A DNA stretch of 64,000 bases from Mycobacterium sp. 050128. Lineage in GTDB: Bacteria; Actinomycetota; Actinomycetes; Mycobacteriales; Mycobacteriaceae. Under the pieces are notes generated by a model that saw only the letters and a program-made list of their open reading frames with translations, was not told the origin of the DNA and did no database searches. The translations under genes were made by a program, and so were the position numbers. Where the stretch lies: NCBI RefSeq assembly GCF_036409155.1, contig NZ_JAZGLW010000002.1, positions 62,001 through 126,000 of the forward strand. Reading direction: 5' to 3'. Shown one piece after another: positions 26,746-44,038 of the stretch. Each line of letters starts with the position of its first letter. Position 1 is the first letter of the stretch.

Positions 26746-27645
26746 TCACGACACCATGAACGGCATACCGACGGCGGTGACGATGATGTTGATGACGAAC
26801 AAGACGATGAAGGCAAACACCACGGTCTCGTTCACCGCCCGGCCGACGCCCGCCGGGCCCCCACCGACCGACATGCCCTTGTAACAGGCGATCAGCCCCG
26901 CCATCAGCCCGAACAAAGTCGCCTTGATCATCGAGATGATCACGTCGATCGTGTGGGTAAGGGTGGTCAGACCCGCCACCCACGCACCCGCCGAGACGTG
27001 CATCAGGAATACCGAACAGAAGAACGCGCCGATCAGGCCAGTCGCGGTCACCACCGAACTCAGGGCCAGGGAGACGGTGGTGGCTGCCAACACCCGCGGA
27101 ACCGCCAGCGCTTGAATCGGGTTGATGCCCATCACACGCAGCGCGTCGAGTTCCTCGCGGATGGTGCGGGCGCCCAGGTCGGCACACATGGCGGTGGCCC
27201 CCGCGCCGGCTACGACCAATACCGTGACTATCGGGGCACTTTGGTCCACGGTGAAGATCGCGCAGCCGGTGCCGGAAAAATCTGCCGCGCCGATATCGGT
27301 CAGCAGGACATTGAAGAGAAAGCCCGAAATCACCGCCCACGGGATCGTCATCAACACCCCCGGCAGTGTCGACACCCGCGCCACAAACCAGCACTGATGG
27401 AGGTATTCACGCCACGCGAACGGTGGCCTGAAGATGGACACGAACGTCTCCACAGACATCACGAAGAAGTCGCCCATCGCGCGGACCGGCTTTGCTGCCT
27501 GACCCACCACCATCACCATCGCGGCGTACACCGCCTGGATTCGACGCCGTTTCGTCGGGTGGAGTTGCTCACGTGGCCCCCCGGACAGGTCGAAGTGGAC
27601 GAGTGACATCCGCGAGGGTACGCGGAGGCGAGCCATCATGTCCAT
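26746..27645 (-). CDS. yrbE3A: YrbE3A, MlaE-type ABC permease subunit
   Basis: About 299 residues; the start is uncertain among ATGs at 27645, 27639, 27636 and an internal one at 27609, none with a strong ribosome site. Longer N-terminus than YrbE3B. The coupling-helix motif appears as ARTIREELDALRVMGINPIQ, and the C-terminal GGGPAGVGRAVNETV closely matches the equivalent stretch of YrbE3B. First gene of the mce3 operon; a 17-bp motif shared with the mel2/echA13 promoter lies about 68 bp upstream. Confidence 0.85.
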   Translation of the reverse strand: MDMMARLRVPSRMSLVHFDLSGGPREQLHPTKRRRIQAVYAAMVMVVGQAAKPVRAMGDFFVMSVETFVSIFRPPFAWREYLHQCWFVARVSTLPGVLMTIPWAVISGFLFNVLLTDIGAADFSGTGCAIFTVDQSAPIVTVLVVAGAGATAMCADLGARTIREELDALRVMGINPIQALAVPRVLAATTVSLALSSVVTATGLIGAFFCSVFLMHVSAGAWVAGLTTLTHTIDVIISMIKATLFGLMAGLIACYKGMSVGGGPAGVGRAVNETVVFAFIVLFVINIIVTAVGMPFMVS

Positions 27646-27712
27646 AGCCAATACGCATGGTTAGCGCTGAAATATCCGTATATAGCGAAGCAAGAGACCA
27701 TTTATGCGTGAT

Positions 27713-27729
27713 GATGTATTTTGTTAGTA
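27713..27729 (-). promoter_or_regulatory. Candidate Mce3R operator upstream of yrbE3A
   Basis: TACTAACAAAATACATC on the minus strand. It matches the copy in the melF/echA13 promoter (37464-37480) at 14 of 17 positions and the copy at 29099-29115 at 12 of 17; the core CAARATACWT is common to all three. Assignment to Mce3R is inferred from the known regulon, not from a published site. Confidence 0.6.
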
Positions 27730-27822
27730 CCGCTGCAACGCCGGACGGGCGGCCGGGTGCCCGGCTGTCTAGGGCCCAGTTTCGAGACCCGCCTCCGGGC
27801 CGTGTCACGTTGGTCGAACGGG

Positions 27823-28020
27823 TCACTCCGGAACCAACTGCAGCGCACCCGACGGGCACAGGTTCACCGCGTTCCGCACCCGGCGCGCCAGGTCGGTGTC
27901 CGCAACCTCGTCGGAGACGAGCAGCACCACGCCGTCGTCGTCCTGATCGAAGAACTCCTCGGCGGTCATCACGCACATTCCGGCGGACATGCAGATCTCG
28001 CGGTCCGCAGCGACTTTCAT
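27823..28020 (-). CDS. [3Fe-4S] ferredoxin, P450-partner type
   Basis: 65-residue ferredoxin. Cluster ligands Cys10, Cys16 and Cys55-Pro give the CxxAxxC...CP pattern of mycobacterial single-cluster ferredoxins, where the fourth ligand position is replaced (Ala13 here), predicting a 3Fe-4S cluster. These proteins usually deliver electrons to a neighbouring cytochrome P450. The ATG overlaps the SnoaL-protein stop (ATGA); the longer open frame to 28197 is antisense to that gene. The only P450 sequence nearby is the tail in the gene at 28418, so its partner is missing or elsewhere. Confidence 0.9.
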   Translation of the reverse strand: MKVAADREICMSAGMCVMTAEEFFDQDDDGVVLLVSDEVADTDLARRVRNAVNLCPSGALQLVPE

Positions 28021-28421
28021 GAGAAGGCCTGCAGGGTGAGCGCCGAGTTCATGAAATCCCGGAAGTGCAACCAACGGCCGTCGCGCAGCGTAATGATATG
28101 CGCGAACTCGGATTCCCATTCGTGCCCGGTGGCGAGCCGCCGGAAGCGTTGCCGGCCCCAGGTGGCGAGTTCGTCGCCTTGGGCGATGAACTTCCACTCC
28201 TCCATCTCGACGATCTCGATGTTCTCCCCGACTTTGGTGAAGAACATCGTCGCTTCATCGATGCCGTGGTAATCGCCTGCGTAAGGGATCGTCTCGGTGC
28301 CATAGTAGGTAATCCGCACCTCGGGATCGAGATACCTCAGCGCGATTGGCAGATCGCCGGCGGGGACCGCGGCGTAAATGGCCCTGGTGGCCGCGATATT
28401 GCGGGACTCGTTGGTGGTCAT
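28017..28421 (-). CDS. SnoaL-like / NTF2-fold protein
   Basis: 134-residue protein of the SnoaL/NTF2-like fold: N-terminal helix (NIAATRAIYAAVPAGDLPIALRYLDPEVRITYYG), the AGDYHGIDEATMFF motif, then beta strands AHIITLRDGRWLHFRDFMNS. Members include isomerases, cyclases, dehydratases and non-catalytic binding proteins, so the reaction is not predictable. It is coupled on both sides by ATGA overlaps, to the SCP2-P450 gene upstream and the ferredoxin downstream. Confidence 0.85.
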   Translation of the reverse strand: MTTNESRNIAATRAIYAAVPAGDLPIALRYLDPEVRITYYGTETIPYAGDYHGIDEATMFFTKVGENIEIVEMEEWKFIAQGDELATWGRQRFRRLATGHEWESEFAHIITLRDGRWLHFRDFMNSALTLQAFS

Positions 28422-28891
28422 GAAAGGTGAAGGGGCAGACGGACATAGGCGTGGGTCAGCAGGCTGGCGGTCTGCTTGGTGCCGGGGTCGTCGGTAAGAC
28501 CGATCGACTGGTAACGATCGAGCACGGCATTGAGCACCGCCATAACCTCCAGGCGGGCCAGCGAAGCGCCGAGGCAGAAGTGCCGCCCGTGAGCCTTGAT
28601 CTGGCCCGTGGCGAGGCCGACGGTGAGGTTGTAGTCCCCGCGCCAGAACCGGTCTGCCACATCGGCGGGCATCGTCATCGTGATATCGGGTTTCAGATCG
28701 CTTGGGCCGCAGATGACTTGGAAGTCCTCGCGCAGCGCGACGGTCAGTTCGTAGGCGGGATCGGTATAGAAGACCCGCAGCACGATGTTGGCGGCGCGGA
28801 ACTTGGGCCCGGACTGCGGGTGATCGCCCGCGTCGCGAAAGACGCCCCCGATGTATTTGTCGATCTCACTGCAATCGGTGAAGAAACTCAT
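28418..28891 (-). CDS. Chimeric protein: SCP2 sterol-binding domain fused to cytochrome P450 tail
   Basis: 157 residues. Residues 1 to about 103 read as an SCP2 (sterol carrier) domain: VFRDAGDHPQSGPKFRAANI, LRVFYTDPAYELTVAL, then DITMTMPADVADRFWRG and VGLATGQIKAHG. Residues about 104-157 are the extreme C-terminus of a P450: RHFCLGASLARLE with heme-ligand Cys106, then LTHAYVRLPLHLS. The Phe-Gly-x-Gly that should precede the His is replaced by the end of the SCP2 domain, and all earlier P450 helices (I-helix AGxET, ExxR) are absent. It cannot be a working P450. A deletion between an SCP2 gene and a P450 gene is the simplest origin. The start at 28891 lacks a good ribosome site; upstream residues show no domain. 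Confidence 0.75.
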   Translation of the reverse strand: MSFFTDCSEIDKYIGGVFRDAGDHPQSGPKFRAANIVLRVFYTDPAYELTVALREDFQVICGPSDLKPDITMTMPADVADRFWRGDYNLTVGLATGQIKAHGRHFCLGASLARLEVMAVLNAVLDRYQSIGLTDDPGTKQTASLLTHAYVRLPLHLS

Positions 28892-29030
28892 GATTGGCAA
28901 TGCAATCACCGCGGCGATGCCAGGGTCAGACCCCAAAGGAGAAGTCTTGGTGCCCCGAACGGGGGAAGTGCCGTCGTGCAGCGGTCGGCCCCGACGCTCG
29001 GCCATTCCCGCCACACTTGGCATATGTCCA

Positions 29031-29067
29031 TCACCGATATCGGATCTACTAGTGCGATATCGGGTGA
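29031..29067. promoter_or_regulatory. Inverted repeat in the cassette's divergent promoter
   Basis: Arms TCACCGATATCG (29031-29042) and CGATATCGGGTGA (29055-29067) are reverse complements except for one extra C; each contains the palindrome GATATC, and a 12-bp centre separates them. It lies between the divergent genes at 28891 (minus) and 29140 (plus), 30 bp from the candidate Mce3R motif. It may be an operator or, in a transcript, a stem-loop. Confidence 0.5.
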
Positions 29068-29098
29068 ATGACACTGCTATCGCTTATATATTCCAAAT

Positions 29099-29115
29099 AA
29101 TGTATCTTGGCGGTA
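29099..29115 (-). promoter_or_regulatory. Candidate Mce3R operator upstream of the epoxide hydrolase-mce3R unit
   Basis: TACCGCCAAGATACATT on the minus strand, 24 bp before the ATG of the limonene-epoxide-hydrolase-like gene, which precedes mce3R. It shares CAARATACWT with the sites before yrbE3A and in the melF/echA13 promoter. If real, it would make mce3R autoregulated. Confidence 0.5.
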
Positions 29116-29139
29116 ATGCGCTGAGGAGGATCCGTTCGC

Positions 29140-29532
29140 ATGACCGATACCAAGGAAGCCAGCGAGAAGCTCGTCCGAGACTTTCTCGGGTCCTGGCAGG
29201 GGCGCAGCTTGGACAGCATCTGCGCCGGTTTTGCCGACGACGCGGTCTACCACAATGTGCCTGTCGATCCGATCGAGGGCATCGACGGTGTCCGCGCGGT
29301 TTTCCAGGCGTTTCTGGACGCGTTCTCCGATGCCAAGCTGGACATCCTCAGCCTGGCCGCCGAGCCGGGTCTGGTGCTCGCCGAACGCATCGACTACTTC
29401 ACGATGAACGACGGCCGCAAAGTCATACTCCCGGTGACCGGCGTGTTCGAGGTCAAGAACGGCAAGATCGCCCGCTTCAGCGACTACTTTGATCTCGCGG
29501 ACTTCGAGCGGCAGAGCGGAATGAAGCTGTAG
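29140..29532 (+). CDS. Limonene-1,2-epoxide hydrolase family protein (EphG-like)
   Basis: 130-residue NTF2-fold epoxide hydrolase. The family's Asp-Arg-Asp centre is intact: Arg83 and Asp85 in ERID, and Asp115 in RFSDYFD; the water-positioning Tyr37 and Asn39 (YHN) are also kept. M. tuberculosis EphG (Rv2740) is of this type and acts on bulky lipophilic, including cholesterol-derived, epoxides. A GAGGAGG site precedes the ATG. It lies 55 bp upstream of mce3R on the same strand and probably shares its transcript. Divergent from the SCP2-P450 operon. Confidence 0.85.
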   Translation: MTDTKEASEKLVRDFLGSWQGRSLDSICAGFADDAVYHNVPVDPIEGIDGVRAVFQAFLDAFSDAKLDILSLAAEPGLVLAERIDYFTMNDGRKVILPVTGVFEVKNGKIARFSDYFDLADFERQSGMKL

Positions 29533-29587
29533 CCGATGCATCTGGCAGGATTGATAATTCGAACGCGCACGAAGGGGGTCGGAGTCG

Positions 29588-30781
29588 ATGGAGACCGTCT
29601 CCCAGCCCGTTAGGCGCCGCCCGAAAGACCGAAAGCAGCAGATTCTGGACCAGGCCGTCGGGCTGTTCATCGAACGCGGCTTCCATTCGGTCAAGTTGGA
29701 GGACATCGCCGAGGCGGCGGGAGTCACCGCGCGCGCGTTGTATCGCCACTACGACAGCAAGCAGGCGTTGCTCGCCGAGGCGATCCGGACCGGTCAGGAT
29801 CAGTATCAAATCGCGCGTCGCCTGACCGCCGGTGAGGCCGAGCCGTCACCCCGGCCGCTCAGCGCCGATCTGCCCGACCACATCGCCGCGGCCGTGGCAT
29901 CGCGGTCCCTGACCGTGTTGTGGCAGCGCGAGGCCCGTTACCTCAACGAGGCCGACCGGGCACAGGTGCGTCGCCGGATCAACACGATCGTTGCCGGAAT
30001 GCGCGACAACGTGGTCTTGGAGGTGCCCGGCCTGAGCCCGCTGCACGCGGAGCTGCGCGCGTGGGCGGTCGCGAGCACGCTGACCGGCCTAGGCAGGCAC
30101 AACCTCACGCTTCCGGCCGATCAACTCAAAGAGCGCCTGTACCAAGCATGTATGGCTGCGGCCAAGACGCCTCCCGTCGCGGAGTTGACACCGCTAGAGG
30201 CCGCGCGGGACGAGGACGGGGTGCTGTTCTCGCGCTACGAGACCTTGCTCGCCGCCGGTGCGCGACTGTTCCGCGCGCAGGGATATCCGGCCGTCAGCAC
30301 CAGTGAAATCGGCAAGGGCGCCGGGATCGCCGGTCCTGGCCTGTATCGGTCCTTCTCATCGAAACAGGCCATCTTGGATGCGCTCATCCGCCGCCTCGAC
30401 GAGTGGCGGAGCCTCGAGTGTATCCGTGCTATCCACGCGAATTCTGAAGCAGCGCAACGTCTTCATAGTCTGGTGCAGGGGCACGTTCGGATCAGCCTGG
30501 ATGCTCCCGACCTTGTTGCCGTTTCGATCACCGAAATCTCGTACGCCTCTGGCGAGGTGCGCGACGGATATCTGAGAAATCAGGCCGACCGCGAAACCGT
30601 CTGGATCGAGCTGATCGCCGAGCTGGTCCCCGAGACCACCCTCGTCGAGGGGCGGCTGCTGGTGGCGGCGGCGATCAGCTTTATCGAAGACGTCGCTCGC
30701 ACATGGCATCTCACGCGATACGTCGGAGTCGCGGACGAACTCACCGCGATTGCCTTATCCATCCTGACCAGCCGGTCCTGA
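29588..30781 (+). CDS. mce3R: Mce3R, tandem-TetR transcriptional repressor
   Basis: 397-residue protein with two complete TetR DNA-binding domains: the first about 16-66 ([21 protein letters not shown]), the second about 217-268 ([21 protein letters not shown]), each followed by a helical ligand-type domain. This double layout and length are those of M. tuberculosis Mce3R (Rv1963c), which represses mce3, Rv1933c-1935c and Rv1936-1941; all of those sets are in this window. Because one chain carries both halves, it can bind non-palindromic sites, consistent with the non-palindromic shared motif. It converges on melK with an 11-bp gap. Confidence 0.9.
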
Positions 30782-30792
30782 ATCGCGACGGT

Positions 30793-31563
30793 TCACCACA
30801 GCGCGGCGATGGTTCCGCCGTCGGCGATCTGCGTGGTTCCGGTGATCATCGATGCATCATCGGACAACAGGAACGCCACGATGCTGGCCATCTCCTCGGG
30901 TGCGGCCATCCGCCCCTGCAAGCGGGAAATCAGCTCGCGCGCGCCGCCGTCTCCGAGTGTCTCGTCGAACATCGTCATCGCGATCTGCTGCATCGGGGTA
31001 TCAACGAATGCCGGCAACAGCGCGTTGGCGCGGATATTGGACGCACGGAGTTCCGCGGCGGTGACGCGGCTGAGGTGGCTGATGCCGGCCTTGGACACAC
31101 CGTACGCCGCGCTGCCGCCCACGCCGATGTGGCCGGCAAGCGAGGACATGTTGACGATGGCTCCCCCGCCCCGCTGGACCATTCGCGGCGCCGCATGTTT
31201 GGTGCACAGCCAGGCGCCGCGCAGGTTGATCGCGATGACACGATCGAAATCTTCGACCCGCGTCTCGATCAGGGGGGCGAAATGAACGACACCGGCATTG
31301 GCGACTAGCTTGTCCACGCCGCCGAACGATTCGACGCAGGCGTCGACCATGCCGCTGACCTGTTGCTCGTCGCTGACATCGACCTGATAACCGATTGCGC
31401 CAGAACCGATCTTGGTCGCGGCGGTATCGGCGGCGCCGCCATCGATGTCCGCGCACAGCACGCCACACCCCTCGGCGACGAGTCGCTGCGCCACCGCGAG
31501 TCCGATGCCGGCTCCCGCGCCGGTGACGATCGCGGCCTTACCGGCCAGGTCTGAATGGCTCAA
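30793..31563 (-). CDS. melK: MelK, short-chain dehydrogenase/reductase (Rv1941-like)
   Basis: 256-residue classical SDR, the same length as I recall for Rv1941. Cofactor turn TGAGAGIG, NAGV strand, catalytic Ser in NMSSLAG and Tyr-x3-Lys in YGVSK; the C-terminal DGGTIAALW closes the fold. Acidic Asp after strand 2 (CADIDG) favours NAD(H). Last gene of the mel2 operon; its ATG overlaps the melJ stop (ATGA). It would oxidise or reduce an alcohol/ketone in the lipid pathway; substrate unknown. Confidence 0.85.
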   Translation of the reverse strand: MSHSDLAGKAAIVTGAGAGIGLAVAQRLVAEGCGVLCADIDGGAADTAATKIGSGAIGYQVDVSDEQQVSGMVDACVESFGGVDKLVANAGVVHFAPLIETRVEDFDRVIAINLRGAWLCTKHAAPRMVQRGGGAIVNMSSLAGHIGVGGSAAYGVSKAGISHLSRVTAAELRASNIRANALLPAFVDTPMQQIAMTMFDETLGDGGARELISRLQGRMAAPEEMASIVAFLLSDDASMITGTTQIADGGTIAALW

Positions 31564-32636
31564 CCCGCCGCCGCCAACGTATGAGTTCCGATGCCGTCCT
31601 CACGAATCGCCCCGAACATCACAAGGCCAAATCCTGGCATGTCGTCGGAGAGTTTTAGGGCGTACAACCCGAGATCGCGCAAGATCCACGCGACGGTCTC
31701 TGGCATCGGGTCACCATGGGCGGCGTCGTGCCGGGCGAACAGGCCACAGGCCCCCGGCCGTCCGGATGGACGCAGGTACACAACCACACCGCTCCCCTGG
31801 GCGGACATCCGCGCCAGCGCGCCATTGAGTTCCTGGCCGCATCCGCACACCTTCGAGCCGAACACATCTCCGGTCAGGCACTCGACGTGAACATGAAGCG
31901 GCACAGGCACTCCGGGGCCGGCCGAGCCGATGATCATCGCCAGATGCTCGCCACTGTCGTGTGCGTCGCGGAAGCCGATAACCCGCGAATCGCCCGCCCA
32001 GGTGGGCAGGATGGTTTGCGTCAGCCGAATCACCTGAGGTTCGGTCCGGCGCCGGTACGCCACCAGCTCACCGATCGAGACGATCGGCAGCCCATGTTCG
32101 ACGGCAAATTCGGTCAGCTCGACGCCGGACGCCATCAGCGCGGGATGGCGCCGCGAGACGATTTCACACAGCGCGGCAGCGCGCCGCCGGCCCGCCAAGC
32201 TCGCGAGGTCGACGGCTGCCTCGGCGGGCCGGGGCCGGACGAGAACCCCGTCCGTGCCGGCTTCCAGGGGGACCACGTGTCCCGGACGTAGGAAATCCGA
32301 AGCCTCGGATACACCGGATGCCAGCGCGGCGATGGTGCGCGCACGATCGCTTGCCGAGATTCCCGTGCCCGTCCCGCGAACGTCCACTGACACGCAGAGC
32401 GCTGTGCTCCGGTGGCACATCGGCGGGAGGTTCAGCCGCTCGCATTCGGAACCCGGCAGTGCGACGCGCACATACCCGGAGGTATGGCGAATCATGAAGG
32501 CCAGCAGCGCAGGGGTTGCGGCGTCGGCGGCGAAGACAAGGTAGCCGTCGCCGCCCGAATCATCGTTGACGACAACGGGTTGGCCGGTCGCCATCGCGGT
32601 GATCGCGCGTAGCACCCGCACATCGGTGGTTTTCAT
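31560..32636 (-). CDS. ribA1: MelJ / RibA1, divergent RibBA-type GTP cyclohydrolase II homologue
   Basis: 358 residues with the layout of RibBA: an N-terminal DHBP-synthase-like domain (about 1-195) and a C-terminal GTP-cyclohydrolase-II-like domain (about 200-358). The zinc ligands of the latter are kept (Cys253, Cys264, Cys266 in ECLTGDVFGSKVCGC). Other catalytic motifs are eroded: the acidic DDxxRENEGD box reads NDDSGGDG, GHTEA reads RPAEA, YLRQEGRGIGL reads YLRPSGRPGACGL, and the LLTNNP nucleotide loop is replaced. It corresponds to Rv1940 in the mel2 locus. Riboflavin synthesis activity is doubtful; flavin-related or new chemistry is possible. Confidence 0.8.
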   Translation of the reverse strand: MKTTDVRVLRAITAMATGQPVVVNDDSGGDGYLVFAADAATPALLAFMIRHTSGYVRVALPGSECERLNLPPMCHRSTALCVSVDVRGTGTGISASDRARTIAALASGVSEASDFLRPGHVVPLEAGTDGVLVRPRPAEAAVDLASLAGRRRAAALCEIVSRRHPALMASGVELTEFAVEHGLPIVSIGELVAYRRRTEPQVIRLTQTILPTWAGDSRVIGFRDAHDSGEHLAMIIGSAGPGVPVPLHVHVECLTGDVFGSKVCGCGQELNGALARMSAQGSGVVVYLRPSGRPGACGLFARHDAAHGDPMPETVAWILRDLGLYALKLSDDMPGFGLVMFGAIREDGIGTHTLAAAG

Positions 32637-32651
32637 CGAGAATCCACCTAC

Positions 32652-33710
32652 CTACTTACTCAGCCCGCCAAGGAAATCGAGCAGCAACCGGTTGGTCTCC
32701 TCCGGCGCCTCCTGCTGAATCCAGTGCCCGACATCGGCAATCATGTGGGTCCCACGATAATTCGGCATCACTTCGGGTGCGCGGTCGACGGCCTCGGCGC
32801 CCCAGGTGGTGCCGACGTCGTACTGGCCACCGACGAACAACGCGGGCGGCGTCAGCGGCTCACCTTCCTGATCGGCCAGGTCGTGCCAGTCGTTGTCGAT
32901 GTTGTGATAGAAGCTCAGCGGGCCACCGAAGCCCGAACGCTCGAACTCGCCCGCGTAGAAGTCGACATCGGCGTCGGTGAGCCAATCCGGCATCGATTCC
33001 GGGTAGATGAAGGCGTCCTTGAGCCGTGCGCCTTCGGCCATGCAGAGCGGGCCGGCGCGGATCACGTCGATGGGATCCATCGATGCCAGGTCGACGCCCG
33101 CGTCGACCGCTGCTTTGGTGGCCGCGATCATCCCTTCGCCGGAGACCGTATAGGTCAGCCCGATCAGCCAGCCTCGCACATCCTCTTCGATCTCGGCGAT
33201 GATCCCGTCCTGCGCGGAGAAGTAGTCCTGGTACCAAACCCGGCCTTCGCCCGCGAGCTCCACGTGATAGTCATTGGGACGGTGCTCACCGAAGGGGCTG
33301 CCCGGCAAGCCAATCACGCCGCGACCCGCGAACGGAACGCTGATCCCGACCACGCCGGCGCACCTGTCCGGATGCAACCAGGCGAACGTCCACGCGACGG
33401 GCGCACCCCAGTCATGACCTATCACGATGGCTTTGTCGGCACCGTAAGCGTCGACGACGCCGAGCACGTCGCCGACCAATTCCTTGATGCGGTAGGCCGA
33501 TTGCACGCGGTACTTCGACGAACGTCCGTAGCCGCGCTGATCGATTGCCACCACCCGGTACCCCGCGGCGGCCAGTGCGGGAATCTGATGACGCCACGAG
33601 TACCAGGACTCCGGAAAACCGTGCAGCAACAGCACCAGCGGACCCTGGCCGTCTTCGACAGCATGAATCCGGGTGCCTCGGCAGTCCAAGAAACGGTGAA
33701 CCTGCGACAT
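32652..33710 (-). CDS. ephB: MelH / EphB, alpha/beta-fold epoxide hydrolase
   Basis: 352-residue epoxide hydrolase. Oxyanion HGFPESW at 30-36, nucleophile Asp100 in GHDWGAPVAW, catalytic His329 in DVGHWIQQEAPEE, and a lid with Tyr residues of the epoxide-activating type. M. tuberculosis EphB (Rv1938) has 356 residues with the same arrangement and opens epoxides to diols. Third gene of mel2, 22 bp after melG. The next gene is melJ, 15 bp on, so the small flavin reductase gene melI (Rv1939) is absent. Confidence 0.9.
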   Translation of the reverse strand: MSQVHRFLDCRGTRIHAVEDGQGPLVLLLHGFPESWYSWRHQIPALAAAGYRVVAIDQRGYGRSSKYRVQSAYRIKELVGDVLGVVDAYGADKAIVIGHDWGAPVAWTFAWLHPDRCAGVVGISVPFAGRGVIGLPGSPFGEHRPNDYHVELAGEGRVWYQDYFSAQDGIIAEIEEDVRGWLIGLTYTVSGEGMIAATKAAVDAGVDLASMDPIDVIRAGPLCMAEGARLKDAFIYPESMPDWLTDADVDFYAGEFERSGFGGPLSFYHNIDNDWHDLADQEGEPLTPPALFVGGQYDVGTTWGAEAVDRAPEVMPNYRGTHMIADVGHWIQQEAPEETNRLLLDFLGGLSK

Positions 33711-33732
33711 CTTCGCCTTTCTTGTCGAGGAT

Positions 33733-36267
33733 CTATCGGGTGTGGCCCGGTGCCGAACTACCTACGGCTACGAGCGAGTTTGCGGCATCGATTGCTGGTA
33801 CGGTGCGATTTTCGTAGTTGCGTGCGATCAGCGTCTTCTGCCCCGACAACCGCGTCCGCGCCCACTTGCCGATGACCCGACTCGCCATCCGGGGTGTCAT
33901 CAGCGCCAGCGGGGGCTTGACAAGATGCAGGACGGCCAAGAATTCGCGGTACGCGTCGAGATCGTCGTGCACCAATTCCGTCAGACGATCCATATACCAG
34001 GTGAGGATGCGGAAATAGAACGGACGCTTCTTGTCGACGTCTTTCATCCAGTCGAAGCGCAGATTCTGTTCGCGGATCACGAACCAGGCGGTGTGGGCCA
34101 TCTTCGCGATCGACTTGTAGTAGCGGCGCGGCAGGTCTTGGTGTCCCGCGCCGTATTTGGCCAGCAGCAGCTGCATTTCCCGAACTTCCTTTAGCGCCAA
34201 GCTCATACCTAAGCCGGATACCGGATCGGCGCTGGTGTAGGCGTCCCCGACGGCAAGCAGCGCGCGCGGCAGGTGGCGCTTCTTCTCGTAGTGCAACCAG
34301 AGCATGTTCGGATAGCGGAAGTTGTATATCGCAGAAGCCGGTTCCAACCCGTCGATGTTTTCGCCCACCACCGGCGAGGGCATCAGATCGGCGAATTCGC
34401 GGAACTCCCGGGCGGTGCGCGGCGGCGAGTAACAGTTGTAGGCGACCAGGGATGTCGAAAGGATCGTGCGCGAGCTGTCGGTGTAGTACTGCGCGGCGTA
34501 GGTGTCCTCGAAGGGACGATACGCGTAGCAGATCACCATGACCTTGTCCTGCCATTGCCGCTCCGGCGGAACGCGGTGCTGCATCGTCGAATAGAAGCAG
34601 TTGATGATGTCTTGTTCGACCTCGGGCGCTCCGACGCCGATGCGATCCAAGAATTCCGGCACGCGGGTGTTCTTGCCCGATGCGTCGACGACGAATTCGG
34701 CCGGCACCACCTCGAATTCACCGTCTTTACTGATGGCAACTCCGACGATGGCGTTGTTCGCGCGGTCGAATACGAGGTCGTCCACCTCCGACTCGTAGCG
34801 GAAGTCGATCTTCGGCTCGCCGTCGAGGCGGCGTCGTACGCACCACTCTAGCAACGGCCTTCCGGCACAGACGATCTCAATGTCACTGGTGCCGGGCTTC
34901 TTCCAGCTTCCGCCCAACCGGATTCGGTACTGGGCTGCCATGTCAACCTTGAACGCGCCCTCACGCACCATGTCGTCGACGATGCCGGGAAAGAAGCGCT
35001 CCAACTCGATCTGACCGGCGGTCAGCAAGTGGTGCAGGTGCCAGCCCTGTGCCGCGCCCGGCCTGCCCTCTCGCCGACGGTGCGGATCGTCGGCTTCCAG
35101 AACGATGACCCGATCAAAGGTCTCACTGAGTACCTTCGCGGCGGCTATGCCCGCGATGCTGCCGCCGATGACTACCGCGGTCCCGCGGCCGCGCCGGCGG
35201 ACCTCGGCAATGTCGATGCTTGTCGGGTCGAGGTGGACCGGATTGCGCCGCCGCGCTGCCCCACTAGGGACGAACTTTTCGTAGTAGAGCCCCACACGAT
35301 GGAAACCGTTGTTGTCCAACCATGTTCGGGTTGTTTCGACCATCGGAGCCGGTCCGCACAAATAGACGTCGGCGTCGCCTCCGGACAGCATCCGCTCGTC
35401 CAGGAGATCCGTGACCAGGCCGATCGGCCCATGCCATTCGGGGCTCGGGCGCGCGACGATGACGTGCACTTCGACCGCCGTCACCCGGTCTCGCAGCGCC
35501 TTGAGTTCGTCGAGCTTGCACAGGTCTTCGCTGGACGTCACTCCGTAGAGCAGATAGACGGGGTGGGCCGTATCGGCGCTCAGGCTCTCGGCCATCGCCA
35601 GGATCGCCGACAAACCCGTGCCGCCGGCGACCAGGATCACCGGCCGGACCACGGGGCGCAGACCGAAGCTGCCCTTGCTGCACCGCAGCGCGATACGGTC
35701 ACCGGGCTTCGCGCGATCGCGCAGGTAGTTCGACATCACCCCGTCCGGCAGCAGCCGGATGATGAATTCGAGCTGACCGCTGCCGTCGGCGGGATGTGCG
35801 TAGGAGTAGTTGCGCCACGTGTTGGTGCCGGGCACCCGCAGTTGGGCGAACTGACCCGCCTGGTAGTCGAGTGCGCCCGTCCTGGACGAGACCTGCACCC
35901 GCAACACGGCGGTGCTGGGTGACAGCAAGTCGACCGCGGTCACCACTGCGTCACACGCGACCAGGCGCGCCGCGTTGTCGTCGGCCGGATACTGCAGTTC
36001 GATCCGGCAATCTGAAGTGGCAAAAGTCTGACAGGTCAGAATCTTTCGTGCATCGCGCTCCACATCGGAAAGACCCTCGGTGCGGCCCATCTCGTACTGG
36101 CCCCAGGCGCAGCTGGCCACACACGTGCCACAGATTCCGCTTTGGCATTCGCTGACGATCGCTACGCCGTGTTCTTCGGCGGCGTCAAGGACCGTCTGGT
36201 CCTCCCGCACCGGCATCGTCTTGTGTGTTCCGTCCGAGTACCCGACGGTTACTTCGCGATCCGCCAT
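33733..36267 (-). CDS. melG: MelG, ferredoxin-reductase-oxygenase fusion (Rv1937-like)
   Basis: 844-residue three-module flavoprotein. (1) An N-terminal [2Fe-2S] plant-type ferredoxin, ligands Cys41, Cys46, Cys49 and Cys79. (2) A ferredoxin-NADP-reductase-like unit (about 105-335): flavin motif RNYSYAH, NAD(P) motif GGTGLSAILAMAE and CGPAPMVE. (3) A C-terminal group A FAD monooxygenase/halogenase-like domain (about 360-844): VVIGGSIAGIAAAKVL, then AVGDAYTSADPVSGLGMSLALKE. Rv1937 (839 residues) has this size. One chain could pass electrons from NAD(P)H to a flavin oxygenase. mel2 genes were linked by others to survival in macrophages and oxidative stress. Confidence 0.85.
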   Translation of the reverse strand: MADREVTVGYSDGTHKTMPVREDQTVLDAAEEHGVAIVSECQSGICGTCVASCAWGQYEMGRTEGLSDVERDARKILTCQTFATSDCRIELQYPADDNAARLVACDAVVTAVDLLSPSTAVLRVQVSSRTGALDYQAGQFAQLRVPGTNTWRNYSYAHPADGSGQLEFIIRLLPDGVMSNYLRDRAKPGDRIALRCSKGSFGLRPVVRPVILVAGGTGLSAILAMAESLSADTAHPVYLLYGVTSSEDLCKLDELKALRDRVTAVEVHVIVARPSPEWHGPIGLVTDLLDERMLSGGDADVYLCGPAPMVETTRTWLDNNGFHRVGLYYEKFVPSGAARRRNPVHLDPTSIDIAEVRRRGRGTAVVIGGSIAGIAAAKVLSETFDRVIVLEADDPHRRREGRPGAAQGWHLHHLLTAGQIELERFFPGIVDDMVREGAFKVDMAAQYRIRLGGSWKKPGTSDIEIVCAGRPLLEWCVRRRLDGEPKIDFRYESEVDDLVFDRANNAIVGVAISKDGEFEVVPAEFVVDASGKNTRVPEFLDRIGVGAPEVEQDIINCFYSTMQHRVPPERQWQDKVMVICYAYRPFEDTYAAQYYTDSSRTILSTSLVAYNCYSPPRTAREFREFADLMPSPVVGENIDGLEPASAIYNFRYPNMLWLHYEKKRHLPRALLAVGDAYTSADPVSGLGMSLALKEVREMQLLLAKYGAGHQDLPRRYYKSIAKMAHTAWFVIREQNLRFDWMKDVDKKRPFYFRILTWYMDRLTELVHDDLDAYREFLAVLHLVKPPLALMTPRMASRVIGKWARTRLSGQKTLIARNYENRTVPAIDAANSLVAVGSSAPGHTR

Positions 36268-36295
36268 TGCTTTGCTCTCTTTCGGCCGGCGACCG

Positions 36296-37405
36296 CTAGA
36301 CGATCGCGGCGAGGGGTTTCTTGGCGATGCGGGCGTTGAGTTTGGGCATGACTTCTTCAGCCAGCAGCCTCAGGGACTCTTTCCAGGGGCCCGGGTTCTC
36401 GACATAGTCGAATCCGAGTACCAGGAGGTGCCCGAACCCGCCCACCTGGTCATAGGTGGCCTCGAGTTTGTCGACCACCGTCTCCACGGAGCCGACCACG
36501 AAGGTGTTCTCGGCGAGGTATTCCGGCGTCACGTCCTCGTCGGGCACCGACGGGTTGTGTTTGTAGAACTTGGTCATGCCGAACATGCGGAATGTCGGCA
36601 GCACGTATTCGCGCATGTTGCGCCCCATCGTGCCGTCGACGGCGTAGCGGAAGGCCTGCTCGTCGGTCTCGGCGACGAAAACCTCACGGACCAAGCGCCA
36701 ATCACGGCGATCTGGAGTCCGGCCACTGCGCGCCGCGCCTTCTAGCACTGCGTCCCAATGTGTCGCGACGTATTCGGTGTTGAGGTCGAGACTCATCGGT
36801 AGGTAGCCGCGCTCGCCGGCAAGCTTGAGTGTCTCGGAGCCCGCGCTGAACCCGGTAACCCCGATCGGGGGATGCGGCTTCTGGAAGGGCTTGATATGAC
36901 GCTTCATCAGGCCCTCGAACATCGGGGCGATGCCGTTGGCGTTCCAGTACTTTCCGCGGTGTTCCCAGGGCTGGTCTTCGGTCCAGATGCGCAACATGAT
37001 TTCGAGCGCTTCACGAGTCATCTCGCGATGCTCACCGTTCTTGCCATCGACGTCATACAGTGCCCAGTCGCCCGGAATTCCACTTGCTCCGACGCCCAAC
37101 ATGAATCGGCCCTGAGCGAGATGATCGAAATAGGCCACCCGATGGGCCAATTCGACCGGGTGGTGATACGGCAGCAGGTGTGCGCCGGGCGCGAGCTTGA
37201 TGGACTTCGTCCGCAGCAGTGCCTGCGCCAACAGCAGGTCGGGGGCGCAGATCGGCTCCCAGGGCACCGTGAAGTGTTCGCCGACCCACGCTTCGACGTA
37301 CCCGAGTTGATCGGCCAGCTCGATCATGTCGAGGTCCCATTGGGTGGCGTCGTACAGCGAGCGCTCCGGTGGGTGGGCCGGCATCAGGAATATTCCGATC
37401 TCCAT
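36296..37405 (-). CDS. melF: MelF, luciferase-like LLM monooxygenase (Rv1936-like)
   Basis: 369 residues, the length I recall for Rv1936. Bacterial-luciferase-like TIM barrel: EIGIFLMPAHPPERSLYDATQWDLDMIELADQLG at the start (split here into its two strands), WVGEHFTVPWEP, and GVGASGIPGDWALYDVDG, then PPIGVTGFSAGSETLKLAGERGYLPMS. It would use reduced flavin to oxygenate a lipid aldehyde or ketone. First gene of the mel2 operon, divergent from echA13. The promoter between them holds a candidate Mce3R site 58 bp upstream of this start. Confidence 0.85.
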   Translation of the reverse strand: MEIGIFLMPAHPPERSLYDATQWDLDMIELADQLGYVEAWVGEHFTVPWEPICAPDLLLAQALLRTKSIKLAPGAHLLPYHHPVELAHRVAYFDHLAQGRFMLGVGASGIPGDWALYDVDGKNGEHREMTREALEIMLRIWTEDQPWEHRGKYWNANGIAPMFEGLMKRHIKPFQKPHPPIGVTGFSAGSETLKLAGERGYLPMSLDLNTEYVATHWDAVLEGAARSGRTPDRRDWRLVREVFVAETDEQAFRYAVDGTMGRNMREYVLPTFRMFGMTKFYKHNPSVPDEDVTPEYLAENTFVVGSVETVVDKLEATYDQVGGFGHLLVLGFDYVENPGPWKESLRLLAEEVMPKLNARIAKKPLAAIV

Positions 37406-37463
37406 GGGTCAACCCTTCTCGATTCTCGTGGGCCGCGAAGCTGGTGCTCTAGGTATACCACAG

Positions 37464-37480
37464 TACTAGCAAGATACTTC
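37464..37480 (+). promoter_or_regulatory. Candidate Mce3R operator in the melF/echA13 divergent promoter
   Basis: TACTAGCAAGATACTTC on the plus strand, 14 of 17 identical to the site before yrbE3A. It is 59 bp from the melF start and 146 bp from the echA13 start, so one bound repressor could control both directions. The octamer at 37477-37484 (CTTCGCTA) also recurs inverted near yrbE3A (27683-27690). Confidence 0.6.
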
Positions 37481-37626
37481 GCTACTTACAAGAGCCAATT
37501 TGCTTGGGACTTTACCCAGAAGACGCTCAGATATGCGCGTATTGACTATGGACATCTTGAGGGCGTGCCGCGTAACCTCGCACAGGTCACCCGTTCAGGG
37601 GGAAGTAGGCAGTAAAAGGAGCCGCC

Positions 37627-40903: not shown

Positions 40904-43900
40904 GTGGCTGACACCGGCATCACGCTCAGCGACGTGCTGGCTCGCCACGCACGGGTGCGGCCCGACAACCTCGCGCTGGTCGATGCGCGCCGGCGGTGTA
41001 CGTTCGCGCAACTCGACGATCGGACGACCCGGCTGGCGAATGTGTTGTCGGCGAACGGGGTTGCGCCGGGCGACCGCGTCGCCGTGGTCGGCTTGAATTG
41101 TCTTGAGCTAGTGGAAGTCTGGCTTGCAACGCTGCGCCTGGGCGCCGTGGCAGTGCCGGTCAACTTCCGTCTGGTCGCTGACGAGATCGCGTATGTGCTC
41201 GCCGACAGTGGCTCCGTCGTGGTGGTCGTGGACTCGGCGTGCGCACCGGCCGTCGCGCGGGCGCACACCAACGCACCGTCGGTGCAGACCGTTCTGACGA
41301 TCGGCGACCACCTGGACGACCTGGTCGCTGCGGCAGAGGGCCGTGCGGTCGAAGTCGCAGTCGCGGACGAGGCGTCCGCGTTCATCATGTACACCTCGGG
41401 TACGACGGGTTTTCCGAAGGGCGCGGTGATCAGCCACCGCAATCTGTACTTGCACGCGGTGAGTGTGATCGCCACCCTGGGTCTCGGTGCGGACGACAAC
41501 TGCTGGATGGCGCATGCGCCGCTGTTCCATGTCGCCGGAGTCTCGGGGATGTTGCCGACGTTCCTGACCGGCGGCACCGTCGTCGTCCCGCCATCGGGCG
41601 GCTTCGACCCCGAGGCCACCATGCGGATGATCGCCGCCGAGCGAGTCACGTCGTGCTGGATGACGCCGGCCCAATGGCAGCTCGTGTGTGCGCTGCCCGA
41701 CCTTCGGTCCTGCGACCTCGACCGGCTGCGTCGGGTGTGGTGGGGCGCGGCGCCCGCGTCAACCACATTGCTGCGCACCATGTTCGAGACCTTTCCGCGC
41801 GCCGAGGTGATCGCCGCATTCGGTCAGACCGAGTGCAGCCCGATCACGTGCCTGCTGCGCGGCGACGACGCGATCCGCAAGATCGGATCGGTGGGCACCC
41901 CGATGCTGGGCGTCGAGGTCCGCATCGTCGACGACGAGATGAACGACGTTGCGCGGGGCGAAGTCGGCGAGATCGTGTACCTCGGGCCGCTTCTGATGAA
42001 GGAGTACTGGAACCGGCCGATCGAGACCGCCGAGGCCTTTCGGGGCGGTTGGTTTCATTCCGGCGATCTGGTCCGCCAGGACGGCGAGGGCTACATTTAT
42101 GTCGTCGACCGCAGGAAAGACATGATCATCTCGGGCGGAGAGAACATCTACAGCGCCGAGGTGGAGAACGTCGTGGCAGCGCACGACAAGGTCGCCGAGG
42201 TCGCGGTCATCGGAGCGCCCGACCCGAAATGGGGCGAGATCCCGATCGCAGTGATCGTCCCGCGCGACCCCGCGAATCCGCCGACCGACGACGAAATCGA
42301 GACGCACTGCCGCGTGCACCTTGCTGCCTACAAACGGCCGCGCCGGCTCGTGGTTGTGGAAGCCTTGCCGCGCAACGCCAACGGCAAGGTGCTCAAGAAC
42401 GAGCTGCGACTCCGGTACAGCGCCGCGGATTCCTACGACGCCGGTCCGGTCGACACTCCCCTGCTCGAAGAGACGATCGGGGCGAACTTCGAGCGCACCG
42501 TGCGCAGCTATCCGGACTCCGAGGCGCTTGTCGACGTGGCCGGCGGGCGGCGGTGGACCTATGCCGAGCTCAACGCCGAGATCGATTGTGTGGCCCGCGC
42601 ATTGATGGCGGCCGGCATTCAGACCGGGGACAGGGTAGGAATTTGGTCGCCCAACTGCCCGGAATGGACCATCCTTCAGTACGCCACGGCAAAGGTCGGC
42701 GCGATCCTCGTCTCGGTCAACCCCGCGTACCGCACGTACGAGTTGTCGCATGTGCTGCGCGATTCGGGGACTCGGCTGCTGGTGTCCGCGACGACGTTCA
42801 AAACGTCCGACTATTGGATCATGATCGCCGATATACGCGCCGAGCTCCCCGAATTGTCGGATGTCGTGTTCCTGGGCACCGAGGACTGGGAGCGGCTGCG
42901 ACTGCGAGCCGATGCGGTAACCGGCGACCAATTGCGTTGCCGGCTGGCCGGACTGAAACCCTGGGATCCGATCAACATCCAATACACCTCGGGCACAACG
43001 GGTTCCCCCAAGGGGGCGGTCCTGTCGCACCGCAACATCCTCAACAACGGGTACTACGTCACCGAATGCATTGGGCTTCGACCCGGGGACCGGCTGTGCA
43101 TCCCGGTGCCCTTCTACCACTGCTTCGGCATGGTGATGGGCAATCTGGGCTGCACCACGCACGCGGCCACCATGGTGATTCCGGCGCCCGGGTTCGATCC
43201 CGCCGCGACGCTGGAAGCGATCGAAACCGAGCGCTGCACGGGACTCTACGGCGTGCCCACGATGTTCATCGCGATCCTCGGCCACCCCGACCTTGGCCGC
43301 CGCGACGTGTCGTCATTGCGGACCGGCATCATGGCCGGCGCGACGTGCCCGGTCGAGGTGATGCGGCGCTGCGTCGACGAACTGCACCTGTCGGAGCTGT
43401 CGATCGCCTACGGAATGACCGAGACGTCCCCGGTGTCCTGTCAGACCCGGATCGACGACGACCTCGCCCACCGAACGGAAACCGTCGGCCGCGTTCATCC
43501 GCACGTCGAGATCAAGGTCATCGACGCGAGCAGCGGCGAGATCGTCAAGCGGGGTCAGCCCGGCGAGCTGTGCACTCGCGGCTACTCGGTGATGCTCGGC
43601 TACTGGCACGATGACGGCAAAACCCGCGAGGTGATCAATCGCGACGGCTGGATGCACACCGGCGATCTCGCGGTGATGGCCGACGACGGCTACTGCGCGA
43701 TCGTCGGGCGCATCAAAGACGTCGTCATCCGCGGCGGGGAGAACGTGTATCCGCGCGAGATCGAGGACTTCCTGCACACCCACCCCGACGTCGATGACGC
43801 GCAAGTCGTCGGTGTTCCCGACGCCAAGTACGGCGAGGAGATCTGTGCCTGGATCAAGATGCGGCCAGACCGCCCACCGTTAGATGCCGAAGCCCTACGG

Positions 43901-44038
43901 GCCTTCTGCGCCGGGAAACTCGCGCACTACAAGATCCCCCGCTACATCCACATCGTCGACGAGTTCCCGATGACCGTCACCGGGAAGGTTCGCAAGGTCG
44001 ATATGCGGGCCGAAACGGTCCGGCTACTGGGACTATGA
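40904..44038 (+). CDS. Double acyl-CoA synthetase: two complete FadD domains in one chain
   Basis: 1044 residues, twice the usual FadD length, with two full ANL adenylate-forming modules. Module 1 (about 1-505): P-loop [14 protein letters not shown] at 162, [28 protein letters not shown]10 Lys495 in [10 protein letters not shown]. Module 2 (about 515-1044): P-loop [13 protein letters not shown] at 694, [26 protein letters not shown]10 Lys1028 in [10 protein letters not shown]. The linker ([21 protein letters not shown]) looks like the natural N-terminus of the second enzyme, with no stop and no in-frame ATG/GTG between. Each module activates a fatty acid with ATP and CoA. GTG start, 6 bp after fadE18; no counterpart is recalled at this place in M. 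tuberculosis. Confidence 0.9.

What the first reader, a model, noticed from the sequence alone, without database searches (positions are those of the whole stretch)
27713..37480. A shared 17-bp motif at three promoters: candidate Mce3R operator
TACTAACAAAATACATC (27713-27729, minus), TACTAGCAAGATACTTC (37464-37480, plus) and TACCGCCAAGATACATT (29099-29115, minus) share the core CAARATACWT. They fall exactly in the promoters of yrbE3A, melF/echA13 and the epoxide hydrolase-mce3R unit. The motif is not palindromic, as expected for a single chain carrying two unequal TetR domains.
Basis: seen in the sequence. Interest (0 to 1): 0.8.

Follow-up and report, generated by a model that had tools for sequence, protein, structure and literature searches.

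The report
Two-site Mce3R operators, fixed spacing
The short DNA motif beside three gene groups in this mycobacterium is the upstream half of a two-site switch whose halves lie 73 bases apart, and the repressor protein Mce3R likely binds both halves to keep predicted fat- and sterol-handling genes off.

Summary
The three sites exist as written. The 17-bp motif (E1) is not a chance match: the 6.73 Mb genome holds only the two good copies, and a 21-bp form occurs in 68 of 69 genomes with an Mce3R orthologue and 0 of 327 without. A second conserved site (E2, GCGTATTGGCTATGGACAT) lies 73 bp downstream, same strand, at all three promoters. E2 is a diverged direct repeat of E1 and covers a predicted -35 box. 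In 69 Mce3R genomes the scan found 162 E1-E2 pairs, all 72-75 bp apart, although much of the DNA between is not conserved. This geometry reproduces the published M. tuberculosis Mce3R operator (two asymmetric 25-bp sites, 53 bp apart), so E1 is likely its weaker 'region 1' and E2 its high-affinity 'region 3'. The window's Mce3R keeps all 20 DNA-contact residues compared. The third site is weakest; it lies between LEH-mce3R and an SCP2-like remnant. Limits: no M. tuberculosis DNA could be read, binding is untested, and the target genes travel with mce3R, so co-occurrence does not prove who binds.

The parts
37464..37480 (+). E1 site, LLM/echA13 promoter (conserved CACAG directly before it, 37459-37463)
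37537..37555 (+). E2 site, LLM/echA13 promoter; contains predicted -35 TGGACA 37549-37554
37573..37578 (+). predicted -10 TAACCT of echA13, 18 bp after TGGACA
   Evidence: read; conserved in the alignment; promoter form in 110 of 162 pairs
27713..27729 (-). E1 site, yrbE3A promoter
27638..27656 (-). E2 site, yrbE3A promoter; contains predicted -35 TGGACA 27639-27644
27615..27620 (-). predicted -10 TACCCT of yrbE3A, 5 nt before ATG 27607-27609 (predicted leaderless start)
   Evidence: read; same form in 32 of 49 yrbE3A pairs
29099..29115 (-). E1 site (weak), between LEH-mce3R and the SCP2-like remnant
29024..29042 (-). E2 site (weak), 73 bp from the site above
29588..30781 (+). mce3R, double-TetR repressor, 397 aa
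   Evidence: two TetR_N stretches; 707.8 bits to Mce3R 9b7y; 20 of 20 contact residues identical
29140..29532 (+). LEH-type epoxide hydrolase gene just upstream of mce3R
   Evidence: PF07858, 75.5 bits
28418..29023 (-). remnant ORF: SCP2-like front joined to a P450 tail
   Evidence: weak P450 match below cut-off, SCP2 match only in a relative (L178)
26746..27609 (-). yrbE3A (MlaE permease), first gene of the mce3-type operon
   Evidence: PF02405; start ATG read
36296..37405 (-). LLM (melF-type luciferase-like monooxygenase), first of five mel2-type genes down to 30793
   Evidence: PF00296
37627..38568 (+). echA13-type enoyl-CoA hydratase, first gene of a unit with two acyl-CoA dehydrogenases
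   Evidence: PF00378; gene name recalled

Best explanation
The motif is the upstream site (E1) of a paired operator that Mce3R likely binds to repress the yrbE3A (mce3) operon, the divergent LLM/mel2 and echA13 units and its own LEH-mce3R unit; the downstream site (E2), a diverged direct repeat of E1, starts 73 bp further on at all three promoters. E2 covers the predicted -35 box of the forward gene, so a repressor there would block RNA polymerase. E1 lies upstream, where a divergent promoter may sit. One Mce3R chain has two unlike DNA-reading heads and fits one asymmetric site; two chains form a dimer (published). The constant spacing, about seven turns of DNA with a largely unconserved gap, suggests that E1 and E2 act as one cooperative unit, which would explain the published gain in affinity when both sites are present; bridging by the dimer is the likeliest way. 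Shown here: both sites, direct repeat, spacing, genes, contact residues. Inferred: binding by this Mce3R, repression, cooperation, bridging.
For: Only the two good E1 copies in 6.73 Mb; exactly three E1-E2 pairs in the own genome by an independent pattern, 69 of 69 Mce3R genomes positive, backward control 0 of 69. Matrix scan: 162 pairs, offsets 72 (5), 73 (101), 74 (50), 75 (6), nothing else in 66-81; reversed DNA 0. At LLM/echA13 the E1-E2 distance has SD 0.65 bp against 14 and 25 bp to the flanking genes. Gap +51..+72 29% identical, E1 85%, E2 89% (81 distinct segments). E1 and E2 match in one register and strand, 1 of 5000 shuffles as good. 26 of 27 yrbE3A pairs without a divergent gene found keep 73 bp, the other 72. 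E1 form in 68 of 69 Mce3R genomes, 0 of 327 others. DNA-contact residues identical 20 of 20. 25 + 53 bp counted from 37459 lands on 37537, the first base of E2, matching the published site layout (PMC11667970). Distant double-TetR relatives' loci: 0 pairs in 15 loci.
Against: No binding was measured and no M. tuberculosis DNA was read, so E1 = region 1 and E2 = region 3 is by layout only; the paper's '-100 bp from the start codon' fits E2 only if the annotated start is further in than ATG 27609 (otherwise it would fit E1). LLM is found only in Mce3R genomes (46 of 46 hits in 248 genomes), so co-occurrence cannot tell an Mce3R site from any other site of this locus. [quoted passage not shown] the solved dimer instead held two separate duplexes. 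No pair one helical turn shorter or longer was seen, stricter than looping alone needs. The third pair scores low (E1 24.4, E2 15.1 bits). 52 of 162 pairs lack the -35/-10 form I looked for.
Confidence: 0.72

Rival explanations
1. E1 and E2 are two independent Mce3R sites, one for each of two back-to-back promoters; the spacing is fixed only by how the promoters are packed, with no contact between the bound repressors.
For: Most pairs lie between divergent genes (70 LLM/echA13, 22 yrbE3A with LEH or mce3R, 43 others). A CAAG tetramer that could be a divergent -35 follows E1 in 69 of 70 LLM/echA13 pairs. The published probes were judged too short to loop.
Against: 27 yrbE3A pairs with no divergent gene found keep the same spacing (26 at 73, 1 at 72). 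CAAG is absent in 42 of 43 pairs that do face LEH or mce3R. Published affinity rises about 20-fold with both sites (Kd 2.4 against 49-59 nM).
Confidence: 0.18
2. E1 and E2 are sites of another regulator or of an activator and promoter elements of this locus, and Mce3R acts elsewhere.
For: The motif travels with the target genes as strictly as with mce3R; E2 overlaps a predicted -35 box and is followed by a conserved -10 region.
Against: Layout matches the footprinted M. tuberculosis Mce3R operator; E2 is far longer than a -35 box and resembles E1; the sites sit at the promoters of the published Mce3R regulon and nowhere else in the own genome.
Confidence: 0.08
3. Chance resemblance of AT-rich promoter DNA.
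For: The 10-bp core alone is not enriched in the window (3 found, 2.17 expected); the third site is beyond 2 mismatches of YTANCAARATACWTS, whose 35 two-mismatch hits are no more than the 42 of the backward control.
Against: Genome-wide uniqueness of the full motif, conservation in 69 genomes, fixed pair spacing.
Confidence: 0.01

Closest known systems
Mce3R operator upstream of yrbE3A in M. tuberculosis (Panagoda et al. 2024, PMC11667970; DNase footprints by Santangelo et al. cited there)
   Same: Double-TetR repressor with identical contact residues; two asymmetric sites of about 25 bp, 53 bp apart, with a third conserved unbound stretch between; before yrbE3A.
   Different: Here the pair is seen at three promoters and in 69 genomes, the two sites are shown to be direct repeats, and the spacing is shown to be constant. 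In the window genes lie between mce3R and yrbE3A, and each side has its own pair.
KstR2 and Fad35R, ordinary TetR-family repressors of lipid genes
   Same: Related DNA-binding domains: both are among the solved chains matched (KstR2 4w1u/4w97; 4g12, named Fad35R in the paper).
   Different: They bind as homodimers of one chain type (PMC11667970); palindromic operators (recalled). E1 is not palindromic (best self match 8 of 18).
Lac repressor with two operators and a short DNA loop (titles and abstracts seen, otherwise recalled)
   Same: A protein with two DNA-binding units and two operators roughly 6-8 turns apart.
   Different: Unrelated protein; asymmetric direct-repeat sites; one spacing only (72-75 bp), not several one turn apart. 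Looping here is inferred.

Membership tests
Mce3R (double-TetR repressor) | Two TetR DNA-binding domains in one chain of about 400 aa | tested here: met
   397 aa, TetR_N with 2 stretches
Mce3R (double-TetR repressor) | DNA-contact residues of the solved complex | tested here: met
   20 of 20 identical; 258 of 306 aligned positions identical (letters)
Mce3R operator | Two asymmetric sites, 25 bp each, 53 bp apart | tested here: met
   E1-E2 start distance 73 bp from TACT, 78 from CACAG; 72-75 bp in 162 of 162 pairs found
Mce3R operator | Site is not a palindrome | tested here: met
   best self-complement match 8 of 18 positions
Mce3R operator | Same bases as the M. tuberculosis footprints | not testable with these tools
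   no M. tuberculosis DNA or probe letters could be obtained
Mce3R operator | Nanomolar binding by Mce3R, stronger with both sites | not testable with these tools
   needs protein and DNA
Mce3R regulon | Sites at the mce3, mce3R, Rv1936-type and Rv1935c-type promoters and not elsewhere | tested here: met
   exactly 3 pairs in the own genome, at these promoters; Rv correspondence of gene types partly recalled

The most novel reading that the evidence does not exclude
Mce3R represses through an obligatory, fixed-length DNA bridge: its dimer clamps two directly repeated asymmetric sites 76-77 bp apart (E1 TACTAGCAAGATACWTC, E2 TATTGGCTATGGACATC in register) into one small closed complex at every target in the genus, so the spacing, and not the sites alone, is the operator.
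Probability: 0.25. Interest if true: 0.72.

Novelty: new member of a known kind. Interest (0 to 1): 0.52.

Why it matters
Mce3R-regulated genes are linked to cholesterol metabolism, oxidative stress and lipid transport (PMC11667970 abstract), and mce3R mutations are reported in contezolid-resistant M. tuberculosis isolates (PMC12472310, passages). The authors of the solved complex left open whether Mce3R loops DNA between its sites. A consensus for both sites, a spacing rule that holds in 69 genomes and a complete local set of targets make that question directly testable, and let anyone predict Mce3R targets in other mycobacteria: here also an SCP2-like gene, an alpha/beta hydrolase and a LuxR-type regulator in different clades.

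Tried and rejected
Chance: rejected. The 10-bp core as the motif: not specific. Extra sites elsewhere in the own genome: YTANCAARATACWTS gave 2 perfect matches plus 35 at 2 mismatches against 42 for the backward control, so no credible extra target. Co-occurrence as proof of the binder: I asked for genomes with LLM but no Mce3R; none in 248 at E 1e-170 (46 with LLM, all with Mce3R; G031 has Mce3R but no LLM hit at that cut-off), so the test is uninformative. CAAG after E1 as part of the core operator: rejected, since it is in 69 of 70 LLM/echA13 and 10 of 22 yrbE3A pairs with a divergent gene, but in only 1 of 27 yrbE3A pairs without one and 1 of 43 other LEH/mce3R pairs; that last count also speaks against CAAG as a general divergent -35. 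Published probe letters: five motif strings were in 0 papers.

Rows dropped: of 44 loci I kept 29 (69% identity or more) as orthologues and used the other 15 as the distant set. In one search only loci with a site visible were listed (for example L014, L016, L018, L024 and L030 have no yrbE3A row). The list was cut, so stray hits away from the locus (at least G081:C23, G076:C7 and G224:C1:857976) are not fully counted.

Full report
Check of the observation. The three sequences stand at the stated places and strands. With up to 3 mismatches the 17-bp consensus occurs twice in the window, where shuffles give 0.05 on average, and twice in the whole 6.73 Mb genome, where the backward pattern gives 9. 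The third site differs at 4 positions, and its 10-bp core is no more frequent in the window than chance, so it needs other support.

Setting. Gene order: yrbE3A (-), SnoaL-like and SCP2-like/P450-remnant ORFs (-), LEH and mce3R (+), five mel2-type genes (-, 30793-37405), then an enoyl-CoA hydratase, two acyl-CoA dehydrogenases and an AMP-binding protein (+). Mce3R has two TetR domains, matches the solved M. tuberculosis protein at 707.8 bits and is identical at all 20 DNA-contact positions compared (positions from PMC11667970).

Conservation. In 29 named orthologous loci the motif recurs at the same promoters, though not every locus shows or holds every promoter. The exception, G160, carries a 3-mismatch site in the same place (seen in L019, a contig of the same length). 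With 148 more genomes, a slightly wider pattern is in 68 of 396 and Mce3R in 69 of 396 (47 + 15 + 7): 68 of 69 against 0 of 327. The backward pattern is found in 2 of 396. LLM is found only in genomes with Mce3R (46 of 248), so this shows that the motif belongs to the locus and does not by itself name the binder.

The missed half. Aligning the LLM-echA13 gap of the window and 20 relatives shows a second block, GCGTATTGGCTATGGACAT (E2), about as conserved as E1. The same block lies 73 bp downstream of E1, same strand, at echA13 (37537-37555), yrbE3A (27656 down to 27638) and, in a weaker form, beyond the third site (29042 down to 29024). In named loci where a site was visible, the window included, E2 is at +73 to +75 in 21 of 21 LLM/echA13, 25 of 25 yrbE3A and 13 of 14 LEH-class cases; the exception, L009, has the yrbE3A E1 at +73 and E2 at +146.

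Census. I fetched the locus from the 69 Mce3R genomes. Scanning both strands with matrices for E1 and E2, and allowing offsets of 66-81 bp, gives 162 pairs: 5 at 72, 101 at 73, 50 at 74, 6 at 75, none at other offsets; 69 of 69 genomes have at least one, and reversed DNA has none. Pairs sort into 70 at LLM/echA13, 49 before yrbE3A (22 of them with LEH or mce3R divergent) and 43 others divergent from LEH or mce3R. A separate pattern of 14 fixed positions finds pairs in 69 of 69 whole genomes, 0 backward; in the own genome it finds exactly three, the three described here. A few hits in other genomes lie away from the locus, and that list was cut. Loci of the 15 distant relatives have no pair.

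Spacing is constrained, much of the sequence between is not. At LLM/echA13 the E1-E2 distance has SD 0.65 bp, while the distances to the flanking genes have SD 14 and 25 bp. In 81 distinct segments the stretch +51..+72 is 29% identical, close to what base composition alone would give (my estimate), against 85% in E1, 89% in E2 and 61% in a middle stretch at +33..+50. E1 and E2 match each other best in one register and strand; 1 of 5000 column shuffles scores as high. They are therefore likely two copies of one asymmetric site in direct repeat, 76 bp apart in register.

Comparison with the known operator. In M. tuberculosis, Mce3R binds two asymmetric 25-bp sites 53 bp apart within a 104-bp conserved stretch with a third, unbound region between; both together give Kd 2.4 nM, without region 1 49-59 nM, regions 1-2 alone more than 100 nM; the solved dimer holds two duplexes, each at region 3 (PMC11667970: abstract, two methods sections and the whole Results section). 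Counting from the conserved CACAG before E1 (37459), 25 + 53 leads to 37537, the first base of E2, and the middle stretch falls where region 2 should be. E1 is therefore likely region 1 and E2 likely region 3. The paper puts the high-affinity site about 100 bp before the annotated yrbE3A start; here E2 is 29-47 bp and E1 104-120 bp before ATG 27609, so this fits E2 only if the annotated M. tuberculosis start is further in (a 265-aa protein, recalled). No M. tuberculosis DNA could be read to settle it.

Mechanism. After E2 a TRGACA-N16..19-TANNYT promoter follows in 110 of 162 pairs; before yrbE3A the -10 is directly followed by a start codon in 32 of 49, a predicted leaderless start. Repression at E2 would thus be by covering the -35 box. 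What E1 covers is less clear: a CAAG tetramer that could be a divergent -35 follows E1 in 69 of 70 LLM/echA13 pairs and 1 of 27 yrbE3A pairs without a divergent gene found, but also in only 1 of 43 other pairs facing LEH or mce3R. Those 27 yrbE3A pairs keep the same spacing (26 at 73, 1 at 72), which argues that E1 and E2 work as a unit. Bridging by the Mce3R dimer is the reading I favour; it is inferred, the authors judged their 123-bp probes too short to loop, and exact spacing without full-turn alternatives is stricter than looping alone requires.

Targets. Behind the third pair the forward gene differs by clade: SCP2-like in the window's relatives (L178), an alpha/beta hydrolase (L182), a LuxR/GAF regulator (L188). 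In the window the SCP2-like part runs into a P450 tail; the stretch 28596-28985 has no match in the fetched 17.5 kb of the nearest relative, G277.

Literature. 64 papers hold 'Mce3R', 30 of them seen as a listing; no paper in the library holds any of five strings of the motif. In the listings only PMC11667970 treats the Mce3R operator, as far as titles and abstract starts show; subscription papers are mostly not held. PMC2277422, PMC10843139 and PMC12472310 were seen as passages only.

Noticed in passing
window 28418-29023 (-): An ORF whose front matches SCP2-like proteins of relatives and whose end carries a P450 heme-type motif: a fusion remnant of two genes, lying directly behind the third E2 site.
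   Followed up: partly
window 29140-29532 (+): An LEH epoxide hydrolase gene precedes mce3R here and in most orthologous loci. The M. tuberculosis mce3R-yrbE3A 'intergenic' region is 880 bp (PMC2277422), long enough to hold such a gene or its remnant; not checked.
   Followed up: no
window 37497-37514 (+) and 27679-27696 (-): A third, moderately conserved stretch (TTTGCTTGG..ATTTAC) between E1 and E2, at the place of the published unbound 'region 2'; its role is unexplained.
   Followed up: partly
window 30793-37405: Here and in most named orthologous loci mel2-type genes directly follow mce3R; in M. tuberculosis they are about 20 genes apart (recalled), so the regulon seems to have been split there.
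   Followed up: no
L216 and L217 (G125:C1): Genome G125 holds the locus twice; in the second copy the mce3R match is in two pieces, while both copies keep E1-E2 pairs.
   Followed up: no
L009; L175 (genome G259): Two E1-type sites 73 bp apart followed by E2 after another 73 bp: three elements in one row.
   Followed up: no
L188:6415-7398 (-): In several Mycolicibacterium-like genomes the gene across from mce3R is a LuxR/GAF regulator behind an E1-E2 pair, a possible further layer of control.
   Followed up: partly
window 40904-44038 (+): A 1044-aa protein with two AMP-binding (acyl-CoA ligase type) domains ends the echA13 unit.
   Followed up: no
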